From contig JAHEFB010000018.1 of assembly GCA_024640405.1 (NCBI GenBank), forward strand, positions 1 through 64,000: a stretch of 64,000 bases of DNA, read 5' to 3'. The notes under the pieces were generated by a model. That model did not search any database and was not told the origin of the DNA. It worked only from the letters and a program-made list of their open reading frames with translations. This document shows, in pieces, positions 59,716 to 64,000 of the stretch; position 1 is the stretch's first letter, and every line of letters begins with the position of its first letter. This DNA comes from Alphaproteobacteria bacterium. GTDB taxonomy: Bacteria; Pseudomonadota; Alphaproteobacteria; Rhizobiales; Aestuariivirgaceae. The position numbers were made by a program, and so were the translations under genes.

Positions 59716-60012
59716 GAAGCCGACTGGACATCTTTATTGCGGCTTAACTTGGGCGGACCAATAGCGACCGGGGATCAGACCCGGCGACTGGAAAAACCCC
59801 AAACGGCTGCTGCGCGGACGGACCGGGCATGTGGGTTTACGGCCGTTCCGCTTGGAATCCAGATCGTTTCCACCGGCAGTTTCATTTGGAGAACAGCCTG
59901 AAATCCAGTCAAGATTGTCTTTCTAGAGAAGAGTTGGACAGGACCGGCGAAAATCGATACGAATTCGAGATGTTTTGGCCGGAGTATTCGTCTGGTTCTG
60001 GGAGTTTGCAGT

Positions 60013-61557
60013 ATGCCGGAGGCTTTAACAGACCAGCCCGTTGAAATGGCAATCCGGGACTGGATCGAGGAATGTGCTTCCACCCATCCCGATGCACCGG
60101 CACTGCTGGACATCTCTGGTTCGACAATAGTGAGTTTCGCAGAGCTGGCCAGGCAGACAGGTGCTCTTGCCGAAGAGTTTCGGGAGATCGGTATCGGCCG
60201 GAAAACAAGGGTCGCGGTTTGTCTGGTGGACGGACCGGAAGCCTTGATAATCCTTTTGTCGCTGATGAGCATCACCGCCGTGCTGCCTATCCACCCGACG
60301 GCAGCCGTGGAACCTGTCGAAGCGCTCGTCGAAAAACTGGGCATCTCGGTTGTCGTGGGTGGCCAGCGTCCGGCCTCGGCGGCATGGAAGGTCGCGGAAG
60401 CCCGCCGCCTGGTTTATGTCGAAGTTGAAAGCAATCCGTCGCGAACGGGAGGTATCCGGCTTACGCCGCATCGCGCGGTTTCAGCGCCGTCACGGGACAA
60501 GGCCGGGCTCGACGACGTCGCGTTGTACATAACGACGTCGGGGACAACGGGCAGCTCATCGATAGTTGCAATTACGCAACGCAGTCTCGACCGCAACGTC
60601 GCGACACACGGCGCACTTAACGGGTATGGACCAGGCACCCGTGCAGTTTGTGTGATGAGTTTCGTCTATGCCTTCGCCTATGTGCGTGCCTCGCTTCCGA
60701 TGCTTCGGTTTGGCGGCGCAGTGGCCGTGGCCCCGGGATACCGCTTCGCCGACATCCGGCAATGCTGTGAGAAATTCAGACCGACCTGCATGGCCGCCAC
60801 TCCGACGATTCTCCAGAAACTCATTGCGGACGCCGAGGCCAGGCGCTGGCAACCGGAACCGGTCGTACTTGGCAGGTTCCATGCCACGGGCGAAGTAATT
60901 CCCGATACTCTGCGCCCTCGACTGCGCGACATATTCGGTGCAGTTCTTGGCACCAACTACGGGATGACCGAGGTGTCGCCGCAAGTGGCCGTATGTCATC
61001 CGGATGACCAGTTTGCGTTTGGCGCGGTCGGCAAGGTTGTATCTCCATGGCTGGTCGACACTGTTGGCGACGATGGCGCGGTGTTGCCCGCAGGCAGCAT
61101 TGGGCGCATCGCACTGCGGGGTGGTTACGTGAACAAGATAGTCGGTATGGGAAAGGAAACTCGTTTTGACGAATCCGGGCGCTTCCTGACCGGGGATCGC
61201 GGCTACGTCGACGAAACAGGGGTACTGTACATCGCTGGCCGTGCCGACGAAGTCATCAATCGCGGCGGCGAAAAGATTGATCCCAAGGTGATCGAGCGGG
61301 CGCTGGAGCGTGACCCCGATGTAATTCGGGCGGCGGCATTTGGTTTGCCCGATACCAGACTTGGCCAAAAAATTATTGCCCTGGTCATTCTGCGGGAAGG
61401 TGCAACCCGGAACGCCAGGGAAATTCGCGAATCTGCCGGTGCATGGATCACCGGGTGGGGGATGCCTGAGCGAATAATCGTGGTTTCGGAAATCCCGTCA
61501 AACGCCAATGGCAAAGTGTCAAGGCACGAACTTGCGTTGCGGTTTGCAGATGAGTGA
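60013..61557 (+). CDS. Stand-alone adenylation enzyme (AMP-binding) of a two-gene NRPS-like system
   Basis: 514 residues; GGGAG lies 9 bases before ATG 60013. ANL-superfamily motifs are intact: LYITTSGTTGSSSIVAITQR (TSGTTG at 175-180), GTNYGMTEVSPQVAVCHP, LTGDRGYVDETGVLYIAGRA, DEVINRGGEKIDPKVIERAL and the catalytic lysine in SNANGKVSRHEL. It should activate a carboxylic or amino acid as the adenylate and load it onto a carrier. The partner carrier is in the next gene, which overlaps by eight bases. A free acyl-CoA synthetase role is possible, but the coupling favours carrier loading. Substrate unknown. Confidence 0.85.
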   Translation: MPEALTDQPVEMAIRDWIEECASTHPDAPALLDISGSTIVSFAELARQTGALAEEFREIGIGRKTRVAVCLVDGPEALIILLSLMSITAVLPIHPTAAVEPVEALVEKLGISVVVGGQRPASAAWKVAEARRLVYVEVESNPSRTGGIRLTPHRAVSAPSRDKAGLDDVALYITTSGTTGSSSIVAITQRSLDRNVATHGALNGYGPGTRAVCVMSFVYAFAYVRASLPMLRFGGAVAVAPGYRFADIRQCCEKFRPTCMAATPTILQKLIADAEARRWQPEPVVLGRFHATGEVIPDTLRPRLRDIFGAVLGTNYGMTEVSPQVAVCHPDDQFAFGAVGKVVSPWLVDTVGDDGAVLPAGSIGRIALRGGYVNKIVGMGKETRFDESGRFLTGDRGYVDETGVLYIAGRADEVINRGGEKIDPKVIERALERDPDVIRAAAFGLPDTRLGQKIIALVILREGATRNAREIRESAGAWITGWGMPERIIVVSEIPSNANGKVSRHELALRFADE

Positions 61558-63343
61558 GGTCAACGCTATTTCTTCAACCTCTGGAGATGCCGAAGCGGTC
61601 GAGGCAGAACTGCTTGCGACGTTTCGACGGTCACTTGGACGGCCGGATTTCGAAGCATGTGATGGATTCCTCGATTCAGGCGGCGATTCACTGACTGTAA
61701 TCGAAACCATTCTGCACATAGAAAAATCGTATGGTGTTACACTGTCTGCGGCTGAGTTCATGGCACTCGACACGGCGCAGAGTCTCGCACGACACATCGT
61801 GTCCCGGATGCATGAACATGAACCCGGGCCACACGCTGAGCATGAAGCTGTCACCAGGCAACACACAATGCTTTCAGTTGTGCAGGAAGGGGAACGTCCT
61901 CATCCTCTGGTCTGCGCGTACGGTTTACACGGCGCTGCGGCGTACGCTATTCCACTGGCAGGCATGCTGCCGAGCGACCAGCCTGTGGCCGCCCTGCAAA
62001 ACCGGACAATCCGGGTGCTGGGTGACGGAAAGCCGTCGTTCCGCGAAACGGAAAGGAATACTGCCAGGAGCATTCTCAATGAATATGCGGACCGCCCGTG
62101 TGCATTGTTGGGTTTTTCGCTCGGCGCTCATGTCGCGCTGGCGGTCGGCCACGAGCTAGCGGAATGCGGGTCCCCACCTGCTCTTATTGTTGTACTGGAC
62201 GATGAGGCCGACCTCGACCGACGGCAGTTTGGCGTGCTTCAACAGGATATTGATCCGGCAAACATCGCAGATGCCAATGGGTATATTGCGAAATGCTCAC
62301 CCGCGGAACCCATCGCTACGCGTCTGGTCTACTTTCGTTCAACTGATAACGACGCTTACTACCGTTCCGACCCTACCAGTGGATGGGGAGAGATCGCGAC
62401 CGGTGGCGTCAGATATTTTGACGTATCTGCCAGCCATCACGAAATTGTGCAAGAATGTGGATTGCACCAAATCGCCTCGAGACTTTCCGAGGAAATCGCT
62501 GCCCCCTGTCAAAACGCTCCACGGCCAGGCGAGGCGCAAATCCTGCGTTTCGAGGCGCGCCGGGCTTCGCGCGAGGGCAACCTTGCAAAGGAACTTGAGT
62601 GCCTGAACCGGGTGATAGAGAAAGACAAGGAACAACCCGCCTGGTTGTATGCCAACCTGGCGGAGGCATTGTTCCAGAAAGGCGAGACTTCCGCAGCTTT
62701 GTCTGCCCTCTCAAAGGCACGCTTTCAGGAAAAATGGCAACTGACGCTGGATCTTCGATTTCTCGGAGAAATCAAGCGGCGAGGCCTTAAAGCGGAACGC
62801 GAGGAATTATTGCGGCGACTTTCGGCAGTTGCATCCGACCACCCGTCTGTGCACGAGCAGAAAGCACTAGCTTATTTCGAGTTCGATCATTTGAAAGAGT
62901 GCCAGCTCGAGCTATCGGCGGGACTTGCCATGCAGCCATGGCACCCTGGTTTGTCTCGCCTTCTTGTCCGATACTTGCGTCGCATCAAGGATTGGCCGGA
63001 ACTGATACATGTGACTGAGCGACTGGTCGAACACTTCCCGAATGCTGCTGTATTCAGGACCGCCCTTATTGCTGCGTATACTGAAATCGGGTCTCCGTAC
63101 CATGCCGTGAGGTTTCACGATGCTATCGTCTCTAAAGTACGACCAGATTTTGATGAATTGATTGCACTTGGCAACGCCATGTTTCGCTGCGGCTGCATTG
63201 CTGCAGCCCTTGAGGTTGCCGAGCTTGCTGCACGGACACAACCTTCACGTCCAGGTGCTCAATTCCTGCGGGCCGAATGCCTGGATGGGCTCGGTCTTCT
63301 GGCAGAAGCTGCAGCCGCAAGAAAACACGCGAACGACATGTGA
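61550..63343 (+). CDS. Carrier protein-thioesterase-TPR fusion
   Basis: 597 residues from ATG 61550. The carrier domain (about 12-90) has the phosphopantetheine serine S47 in CDGFLDSGGDSLTVIETIL. A type I thioesterase domain follows (about 115-320): nucleophile S190 in ALLGFSLGAHVALAVG, acid D217/D218 in VVLDDEADLD, and H296/H297 in FDVSASHHEIVQECG. The rest (about 335-597) is helical TPR-like (EGNLAKELECLNRVIEKDKE, WLYANLAEALFQKGETSAAL). Carrier plus thioesterase fits the end of an NRPS line, but there is no condensation domain, and a TPR tail is unusual. The start overlaps the adenylation gene, so the two are made together. Confidence 0.85.
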   Translation: MSEVNAISSTSGDAEAVEAELLATFRRSLGRPDFEACDGFLDSGGDSLTVIETILHIEKSYGVTLSAAEFMALDTAQSLARHIVSRMHEHEPGPHAEHEAVTRQHTMLSVVQEGERPHPLVCAYGLHGAAAYAIPLAGMLPSDQPVAALQNRTIRVLGDGKPSFRETERNTARSILNEYADRPCALLGFSLGAHVALAVGHELAECGSPPALIVVLDDEADLDRRQFGVLQQDIDPANIADANGYIAKCSPAEPIATRLVYFRSTDNDAYYRSDPTSGWGEIATGGVRYFDVSASHHEIVQECGLHQIASRLSEEIAAPCQNAPRPGEAQILRFEARRASREGNLAKELECLNRVIEKDKEQPAWLYANLAEALFQKGETSAALSALSKARFQEKWQLTLDLRFLGEIKRRGLKAEREELLRRLSAVASDHPSVHEQKALAYFEFDHLKECQLELSAGLAMQPWHPGLSRLLVRYLRRIKDWPELIHVTERLVEHFPNAAVFRTALIAAYTEIGSPYHAVRFHDAIVSKVRPDFDELIALGNAMFRCGCIAAALEVAELAARTQPSRPGAQFLRAECLDGLGLLAEAAAARKHANDM

Positions 63344-63636
63344 GCCTGTTTGTTGCGGTTGATGTCTGAGTATATCTGCAAAGGCATGCCCTCGGGCATT
63401 GCTTCGGTGGGCCAAATCCACTCATCGGCGTTGTTGCGATGCTTGCCCGATACACTGCATCGCGCTTCACTTTGCGCCTAGCCGAATGAACTGATTTGAT
63501 CCACCGAAGGTCGGTTTTCTGGGCCCGCTGGACAGCGTTGCGGCGTCCTTGTGGTCAACCAGACCACGGCGGAAACCGCGCCTTGCCAGCGAAAACAGAA
63601 AACCGGTCAAACGATTCTATCTGGGCGAAAGTTGCT

Positions 63637-64000
63637 CTATACACCCAGGTAGCGGTGCTGGACATCTTCAGCCCTGGAGAGCTGCTCGGATGTACCGGAC
63701 CAGACAACCTGTCCCTTTTCGACAATGAAATGCCGGTCCGCCAGTTTCAAAAGGTCTTTGAGGTTCTTGTCGACGACCAGAATGGACAAACCACTCTGGC
63801 GGATATCGGCAAGAGCTGCCCAGATTTTCTCGCGGATCAGAGGGGCAAGTCCTTCGGTGGCTTCATCGAGAACGAGGAGACGCGGGTTGGTCATCAGCGC
63901 CCGGCCAATGGCCAGCATCTGCTGTTCACCACCTGAAAGAAGATTGCCCATCGACGTTGCCCGTTGCTCCAGCTCGGGAAACATTGCGTACACTTTTTCA
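63637..64000 (-). CDS. ABC transporter ATP-binding protein, LivF type (cut by window edge)
   Basis: Only the C-terminal 121 residues are here; the reading frame stays open through 64000, so the start and Walker A lie beyond the window. The visible parts are LLSGGEQQMLAIGRALMTNP (signature), LLVLDEATEGLAPLIREKIW (Walker B, with DEA in place of the more common DEP), and an altered H-loop region ILVVDKNLKDLLKLADRHFI, in which Lys stands where LivF proteins usually have His or Gln. It belongs to the branched-chain amino acid/urea-type ABC family. Confidence 0.88.
   Translation of the reverse strand, partial: EKVYAMFPELEQRATSMGNLLSGGEQQMLAIGRALMTNPRLLVLDEATEGLAPLIREKIWAALADIRQSGLSILVVDKNLKDLLKLADRHFIVEKGQVVWSGTSEQLSRAEDVQHRYLGV

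What the first reader, a model, noticed from the sequence alone, without database searches (positions are those of the whole stretch)
60013..63343. Two-gene NRPS-like system: free adenylation enzyme plus carrier-thioesterase-TPR fusion
Seen: intact ANL motifs in the first protein, then an overlapping gene with a phosphopantetheine serine (S47, GGDSL), a thioesterase triad (S190, D217/218, H296/297) and a long TPR-like C-terminus. No condensation, reductase, ketosynthase or transport gene accompanies them. Family knowledge: such parts activate, tether and release one acyl or aminoacyl group. Inference: the pair could make a single-residue product, transfer an aminoacyl group to a partner recruited by the TPR region, or hydrolyse mischarged carriers. 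I know no described pathway with exactly this layout.
Basis: partly seen in the sequence, partly recalled or inferred. Interest (0 to 1): 0.68.

Follow-up and report, generated by a model that had tools for sequence, protein, structure and literature searches.

The report
Mobile two-gene acyl-activating enzyme pair
Two overlapping bacterial genes, found also inside a phage-like DNA contig, appear to encode a small enzyme pair that activates one carboxylic acid, holds it on a carrier and releases it; the product is unknown, so it is an uncharacterised, rarely seen variant of a known enzyme type.

Summary
ORF1 (60013-61557) is a free ANL adenylation enzyme; ORF2 (61550-63343) is carrier-thioesterase-TPR, with S47 and S190/D217/H296 as stated. 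The layout is not unique: the same two genes, same order, same 8-nt overlap, occur in Aliiroseovarius sp. S1123 (68%/50% identical) and in an IMG/VR contig (79%/70%). A Paracoccaceae plasmid has all four modules fused, beside a TauD-type oxygenase gene. The IMG/VR contig looks like a temperate phage fragment (integrase, repressor, the pair, methyltransferase, terminase, portal). In the window's genome the pair sits in a ~3.9-kb insertion missing from 4 of 4 testable same-genus genomes. Both genes are under purifying selection.

ORF1 lacks the Asp that binds alpha-amino groups, so an alpha-amino acid is unlikely. The thioesterase Asp aligns with type I enzymes, against a proofreading role. Best reading: a horizontally moving, sometimes phage-carried cassette that activates a carboxylic acid, loads it on a carrier and releases or transfers it, the TPR recruiting a partner. 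Substrate, acceptor and benefit are unknown. New variant of known NRPS-like A-T-TE enzymes.

The parts
60013..61557 (+). ORF1, free-standing ANL adenylation (AMP-binding) enzyme, 514 aa; A10 lysine K501 at 61513-61515; residue equivalent to GrsA D235 is A220 at 60670-60672
61550..63343 (+). ORF2, carrier-thioesterase-TPR protein, 597 aa
61589..61816 (+). carrier domain of ORF2 (residues 14-89), phosphopantetheine serine S47 at 61688-61690
   Evidence: PF00550 43 bits; four helices, residues 44-53 under pLDDT 50; S47 identical in 4 sequences
61862..62509 (+). thioesterase domain of ORF2 (about residues 105-320), S190 62117-62119, D217 62198-62200, H296 62435-62437
62531..63340 (+). TPR superhelix of ORF2 (residues 328-597, about 8 repeats)
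61550..61557 (+). 8-nt overlap of ORF1 stop and ORF2 start, same geometry in 3 of 3 two-gene loci
59751..63640 (.). about 3.9-kb insertion between a DUF3750-like gene (name recalled) and the liv-type ABC operon; absent from 4 of 4 testable same-genus genomes (boundaries good to about 10 bases)
63402..63637 (.). genome-wide palindromic (MITE-like) repeat at the right end of the insertion

Best explanation
The pair is a self-contained, horizontally moving NRPS-like cassette that a temperate phage can carry as cargo. ORF1 adenylates a carboxylic acid that is probably not an alpha-amino acid (aliphatic, aryl or alpha-keto/hydroxy acid) and loads it on the phosphopantetheine of S47 in ORF2, after priming by a host phosphopantetheinyl transferase. 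The type I-like thioesterase (S190-D217-H296) takes the acyl group and releases it as an acid or lactone, or transfers it to an acceptor. The TPR superhelix recruits the acceptor, a tailoring enzyme or a further copy of the protein. Shown here: genes, domains, catalytic residues, conserved coupling, selection, insertion, phage-contig context. Inferred: substrate class, loading in trans, release or transfer, TPR role, and benefit to host or phage.
For: Domains and residues. S190 and D217 align with the Ser and Asp of two type I polyketide thioesterases printed residue by residue (9cgo, 9cel), and the DEBS matches end at query 217 / chain 169 (that S142 and D169 are catalytic in DEBS is recalled). 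The ORF2 model's TPR part matches an 8-repeat TPR superhelix at Z 14.7, rmsd 6.7, 267 residues. Same order and 8-nt overlap in 3 of 3 loci; a fused homolog with the same module order. dN/dS about 0.2-0.25. D235 equivalent is Ala/Leu; a review (PMC11253843, passages seen) describes alpha-hydroxy and alpha-keto acid domains and DhbE without that Asp. Two phosphopantetheinyl-transferase matches in the genome. Insertion: 4 of 4 empty sites. Phage contig: integrase, repressor, terminase, portal, terminase 62% identical to Rhodobacter phages.
Against: No substrate can be read from the sequence. McyG activates Phe with Val in place of the Asp, and the same review also writes of a D235 in the aryl-acid enzyme EntE (PMC11253843), so the Asp rule is not strict either way. 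The A3 loop lacks Pro-Lys in the split versions, and activity is untested. The ORF1 model failed (pLDDT 39) and the TE part of the ORF2 model is mostly under pLDDT 60. The Foldseek match to a carrier-TE-like entry, 3tej, has rmsd 12.3 and no range shown, so it is weak. ORF1 could be a CoA ligase that never loads S47: its best solved matches are CoA ligases. The phage link rests on one metagenomic contig; around the copies in the window and in Aliiroseovarius I saw no phage genes by eye.
Confidence: 0.6

Rival explanations
1. The pair modifies a surface polysaccharide or other acceptor: the thioesterase acts as an acyltransferase, changing the cell surface, which in a lysogen would block other phages or alter the host surface (lysogenic conversion).
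For: A [carrier-TE][adenylation] gene pair in another genome of the same order lies beside dTDP-rhamnose genes, and a distant NRPS homolog of Phaeobacter lies among glycosyltransferase and pyruvyl-transferase genes. Phage-contig cargo on the strand opposite to its neighbours. TPRs commonly bind partner proteins (recalled).
Against: No membrane, export or glycosyltransferase gene recognised by eye as part of the pair in its three loci. The two relatives beside polysaccharide genes are distant (24-29%); one has no TPR by Pfam, the other was not scanned. Cytosolic proteins would need a cytosolic acceptor.
Confidence: 0.15
2. A type II-like editing or housekeeping thioesterase plus an ordinary acyl-CoA ligase: the pair clears mischarged carriers or salvages an acid.
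For: ORF1's best solved matches are CoA ligases; no multi-module synthetase lies beside the pair, though the genome has other AMP-binding genes.
Against: Asp at the type I position, identical in 4 sequences, whereas D268 is missing in the fused homolog; ORF2 brings its own carrier; the fixed overlap and the fused homolog tie the two activities together. The genome already has 34 AMP-binding matches.
Confidence: 0.1
3. An A-T-TE synthetase of the furanone/quinone kind: the TE joins two alpha-keto acids on the carrier into a lactone or quinone.
For: Module order and a non-Asp pocket fit; PMC9047271 (start of abstract seen) describes TE-catalysed condensation of two aromatic alpha-keto acids by non-reducing NRPS-like enzymes. 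YGMTE has Met where amino-acid domains have Pro, as in StsA (PMC11253843 passages).
Against: YGMTE also occurs in 2 of 8 other own-genome AMP-binding proteins aligned and the fused homolog has YGQSE. No direct comparison with such synthetases was made. TPR and split genes are extra.
Confidence: 0.1
4. An anti-phage defence module carried by prophages.
For: Phage-contig cargo, sporadic distribution.
Against: No PADLOC match for either protein; no defence genes recognised by eye around the window or Aliiroseovarius copies (neighbours not scanned with PADLOC).
Confidence: 0.05

Closest known systems
LA6_006304 of Paracoccaceae bacterium La 6, plasmid pLA6_008 (annotated long-chain-fatty-acid--CoA ligase)
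   Same: Adenylation, carrier, thioesterase with DDEAD motif and TPR in the same order; 30% identical to ORF1, 28-29% to ORF2
   Different: One 1117-aa protein; BLAST alignment to ORF2 stops at residue 476; TauD-type oxygenase gene overlaps it by 4 nt among genes annotated as nicotinate degradation
Non-reducing NRPS-like A-T-TE synthetases (furanone, quinone)
   Same: Adenylation-carrier-thioesterase logic without condensation domain
   Different: Two genes instead of one, added TPR, chemistry unknown; membership not shown
Type I thioesterases of tylosin and erythromycin (DEBS) polyketide synthases
   Same: Ser and Asp of the triad align
   Different: Not at the end of a multi-module synthase; a TPR follows the TE
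Oxalyl-CoA and malonyl-CoA synthetases
   Same: Best solved relatives of ORF1 by sequence
   Different: Free CoA ligases without a dedicated carrier gene (recalled); the LRFIRSCSA stretch of the oxalate enzyme differs in ORF1
   Same: Free adenylation gene beside a carrier-TE gene
   Different: Reverse order, no TPR by Pfam, beside dTDP-rhamnose genes

Membership tests
ANL adenylate-forming superfamily (ORF1) | AMP-binding core and C-terminal domain with A3, A5, A7, A8 motifs and A10 lysine | tested here: met
   A3 lacks Pro-Lys
NRPS alpha-amino-acid adenylation domain | Asp at the GrsA 235 position | tested here: not met
   Ala in the window, Leu in 3 of 3 relatives; exceptions to the rule are known
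Carrier protein (PF00550) | PF00550 over cut-off with the phosphopantetheine serine | tested here: met
   43 bits against 20.8; S47 identical in 4 sequences
Type I thioesterase | Ser-Asp-His triad with Asp at the DEBS D169 position | tested here: met
   the window protein alone is just under the Pfam cut-off
Type II (editing) thioesterase | Free-standing, without a carrier of its own; catalytic Asp late in the fold (recalled for RifR) | tested here: not met
   Own carrier; Asp at the type I position
TPR protein | Tandem 34-residue helical repeats | tested here: met
Non-reducing NRPS-like A-T-TE synthetase | A, T and TE in one polypeptide | tested here: not met
   Split over two genes in 3 of 3 close loci; fused only in the distant homolog
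Non-reducing NRPS-like A-T-TE synthetase | TE condenses two alpha-keto acids | not testable with these tools
   needs enzyme assay
Phage cargo (moron) | Flanked on both sides by phage genes, on the strand opposite to its neighbours, missing from related phages | tested here: met
   One contig only; ORF2 in 0 of 50,697 phage records at E 1e-3, a set that holds terminase relatives of the contig. Own promoter and terminator not shown.
Known anti-phage defence system | Match to a PADLOC model | tested here: not met
   0 families for both proteins at E 0.01

The most novel reading that the evidence does not exclude
Temperate phages of alphaproteobacteria carry a two-gene carrier-tethered acylation system that chemically marks a host molecule picked by the TPR arm, for instance a surface or signalling molecule, to the benefit of the lysogen: a new kind of phage cargo built from NRPS parts.
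Probability: 0.18. Interest if true: 0.8.

Novelty: new variant of a known kind. Interest (0 to 1): 0.52.

Why it matters
If it works as proposed, it is one of the smallest self-contained carrier-tethered acylation systems known to me, compact enough to ride in a phage. It gives a tractable test of whether phages move single-module biosynthesis or acylation, and of what a TPR arm adds to a carrier-thioesterase. In 10 searches of a library of 5.39 million open papers I saw no paper on a carrier-thioesterase-TPR protein or on this pair in a phage. The listings were capped (for example 20 of 42 papers, 15 of 162), and I saw titles and starts of abstracts, plus passages of two papers; absence from print is therefore not shown.

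Tried and rejected
Close relatives by pattern scan of genome contigs: the first scan with the window protein alone found none, the second with a two-row alignment found one locus. These scans need exact short peptides, so they understate how common the pair is. Genome sets (overlapping each other): 60 relatives, own only; 385 of the class, own plus 10 genomes with partial matches only (carrier-TE or TPR alone) at E 1e-6 or better; 398 of the phylum with the TE-TPR alignment at E 1e-12, own only; 394 of the Aliiroseovarius family at E 1e-15, that genome and one more with a long fused frame, perhaps La 6; 327 of the order at E 1e-12, own and one distant carrier-TE. ORF1 alone at E 1e-70 or better: own only, of 383. 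Plasmids: 99 records with ORF2 matches, none covering 80% in one place. Viral contigs: 4 scans, the first empty, three finding the same one contig.

Rejected: a third gene in the insertion (other listed ORFs there overlap ORF1 or ORF2 or the repeat; not tested further); a prophage remnant in the window (no phage gene seen by eye, no tRNA at the junctions; DNA similarity to the phage contig runs from about 59956 to 63321 only). No transposase was seen by eye in the insertion. Promoter and terminator scans gave about as many sites as shuffles: 2 against 1.8 and 4 against 4.5. The ORF1 structure model was too poor to use. One search searched each end by itself; comparing the two ends shows an 11-base direct repeat, 59724-59734 and 63658-63668, about 16-18 bases outside the junctions, the second copy inside the livF-like gene; shared words of 8 or more came in about 5% of shuffles. 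I cannot say whether it is a target duplication. ORF1's 30% match to a 1122-aa own-genome protein is an adenylation-carrier protein whose C-terminal half looks condensation-like by eye, not a homolog of the layout. Neighbourhoods of other T-TE relatives were seen only in part: 20 of 73 predicted ORFs of L076-L080 went to Pfam, none of L080, and in L079 not the matching gene itself. The alignment asked for 18 loci beside the four pair members and the Phaeobacter protein; L020, L021 and L031 gave no usable frame.
Full report
Observation. ORF1 (60013-61557, 514 aa) and ORF2 (start at 61550, end 63343, 597 aa) are real genes that overlap by 8 nt. ORF1 scores 157 bits for AMP-binding and 43 for AMP-binding_C; ORF2 scores 43 bits for PP-binding and 37 for TPR_14, all over Pfam's cut-offs; the Thioesterase model scores 23.7 in the window protein, under its cut-off of 26.4, but 3 of 3 family members scanned match it, best E 6.9e-9, and the fused homolog scores 53 bits. 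The AlphaFold model of ORF2 (three-row alignment, mean pLDDT 62) shows a four-helix carrier with S47 at the start of a helix (that stretch is under pLDDT 50), an alpha/beta domain of weak confidence, and an all-helical C-terminus mostly over 70. Foldseek's list is led by TPR superhelices and holds 3tej, a natural-product biosynthesis domain fragment (recalled as EntF carrier-TE), at E 3.5e-5 with rmsd 12.3; VIA-align gives Z 14.7, rmsd 6.7 over 267 residues to an 8-repeat consensus TPR (Z near 14 is common for repeats).

Relatives. A first scan of the genome-contig collection (one genome for each of 84,980 species) with ORF2 found nothing. A BLAST search of plasmids found a Paracoccaceae plasmid whose 1117-aa protein matches ORF2 residues 8-476 and ORF1 residues 17-512 at 30%: adenylation, carrier, TE and TPR in one chain, its start overlapping a TauD-type oxygenase gene by 4 nt. 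With that protein and ORF2 aligned, the second genome scan found Aliiroseovarius sp. S1123 and a viral-contig scan found IMGVR_UViG_3300017613_004163. Both carry the two genes in the same order. Identities to the window: ORF1 79% (phage contig) and 68% (Aliiroseovarius), ORF2 70% and 50%. ORF2 begins 7 bases before the last base of ORF1 in 3 of 3 loci. dN and dS between window and phage contig are 0.121 and 0.616 (ORF1) and 0.192 and 0.772 (ORF2); the carrier, TE and TPR parts taken separately also have dN well under dS; against Aliiroseovarius dS of ORF2 is saturated and gives no ratio. S47, S190, D217, D218 and H296 are identical in all 4 sequences; D268 is not.

Mobility. The window's left and right flanks are adjacent in 4 of 4 same-genus genomes that could be tested (of 5; in the fifth the left gene is cut by a contig end), with 14-23 bases between them where the window has about 3.9 kb (the 14 is my arithmetic for the genome whose alignment stops early). 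ORF2 had no match in 5 of 5 same-genus genomes. The right end of the insertion is a palindromic repeat with 63 matches in the genome and 9 to 42 in 4 of 5 same-genus genomes (none in the fifth), so it is a generic repeat and not specific to the pair. An 11-base repeat lies just outside the two junctions, unexplained. The phage contig (15.3 kb) begins with a tRNA-Cys, followed by an integrase, a repressor, a replication-like gene (weak match), a gene of phage family phrog_9306, then the pair on the strand opposite to its neighbours, then a ParB-methyltransferase, a Phd/ParE-type toxin-antitoxin pair, terminase small and large subunits and a portal protein. Its terminase large subunit is 62% identical over 89% of its length to that of Rhodobacter capsulatus phages such as RcBaka, which has other opposite-strand genes between its ParB-like gene and terminase. 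That the contig's phage is temperate is inferred from integrase and repressor. None of 50,697 phage records has an ORF2 match at E 1e-3, and the whole contig has no near DNA match there. In Aliiroseovarius the pair follows genes that look like a nos cluster with apbE and a Crp/Fnr regulator, named by eye. The phage-contig and window copies are closer to each other than either is to Aliiroseovarius, which fits transfer by phage but does not prove it.

Chemistry. In a 21-protein alignment the residue aligned with the conserved Asp of NRPS domains is A220 in the window and Leu in the three relatives (the identification as position 235 relies on the aligned FD motifs of NRPS proteins). A review (PMC11253843, passages seen) says that this Asp was considered essential for alpha-amino acids, is replaced in the alpha-hydroxy and alpha-keto acid domains with known structure and in DhbE, names McyG as an amino-acid exception, and in one passage writes of a D235 in EntE, so the rule is a guide. 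ORF1's nearest solved relatives are oxalyl- and malonyl-CoA synthetases, and of the 25 NCBIfam models shown (of 98) none comes near its cut-off. So the substrate is probably a carboxylic acid without an alpha-amino group, not identified. R225 is identical in the four and could meet a second polar group of the substrate (inference). The A3 loop lacks Pro-Lys, a caution on activity. S190 and D217 align with the Ser and Asp of the two polyketide thioesterases printed, and the DEBS matches end at 217/169, the residue recalled as catalytic Asp. The genome has two phosphopantetheinyl-transferase matches in open frames of 146 and 256 aa, sizes that fit AcpS and Sfp types from recall.

Role of the TPR. 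If it only docked the free adenylation enzyme it should be dispensable in the fused homolog; it is kept there. A partner protein, a tailoring enzyme (an oxygenase gene overlaps the fused gene) or self-assembly are the options. A distant [carrier-TE][adenylation] pair in a genome of the same order lies next to dTDP-rhamnose genes, and the Phaeobacter NRPS homolog lies among polysaccharide genes, which is why surface acylation is kept as the main rival; the first has no TPR by Pfam, the second was not scanned.

Verdict. Real, conserved, mobile and so far, in what I could search, uncharacterised. It works like a single-module A-T-TE enzyme but is not filed as one: the single-chain feature is not met and the TE chemistry is untestable here. 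The new point is the spread by insertion and in a phage contig. The literature searches (capped listings) showed no description; the only paper on phage-carried biosynthesis met was a reference-list entry (Dragos et al. 2021, seen only as a citation in PMC11915812).

Noticed in passing
window 63402-63637: Two-unit palindromic repeat with 63 matches in the window's genome and 9 to 42 in 4 of 5 same-genus genomes, MITE-like; no transposase looked for elsewhere.
   Followed up: partly
window 59724-59734 and 63658-63668: 11-base direct repeat just outside both junctions of the insertion; origin unclear.
   Followed up: no
L076:7991-10497: Carrier-TE gene followed by a free adenylation gene next to dTDP-rhamnose genes in another genome of the same order: a second two-gene layout, in reverse order and without TPR by Pfam.
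   Followed up: partly
L022:11503-15779: TauD-type oxygenase gene overlapping the fused adenylation-carrier-TE-TPR gene by 4 nt, among genes annotated as nicotinate degradation on plasmid pLA6_008.
   Followed up: partly
L034:10895-11496: Phd/ParE-type toxin-antitoxin pair between methyltransferase and terminase of the phage contig.
   Followed up: no
L032:5218-8586: Own-genome 1122-aa protein, adenylation and carrier followed by a condensation-like half (by eye), beside an adenylate-cyclase-like gene (by eye).
   Followed up: no
L078:8859-9962: Carrier-TE gene right after genes that look like a TRAP transporter (by eye); no adenylation gene recognised beside it, though most neighbours were not scanned.
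   Followed up: no
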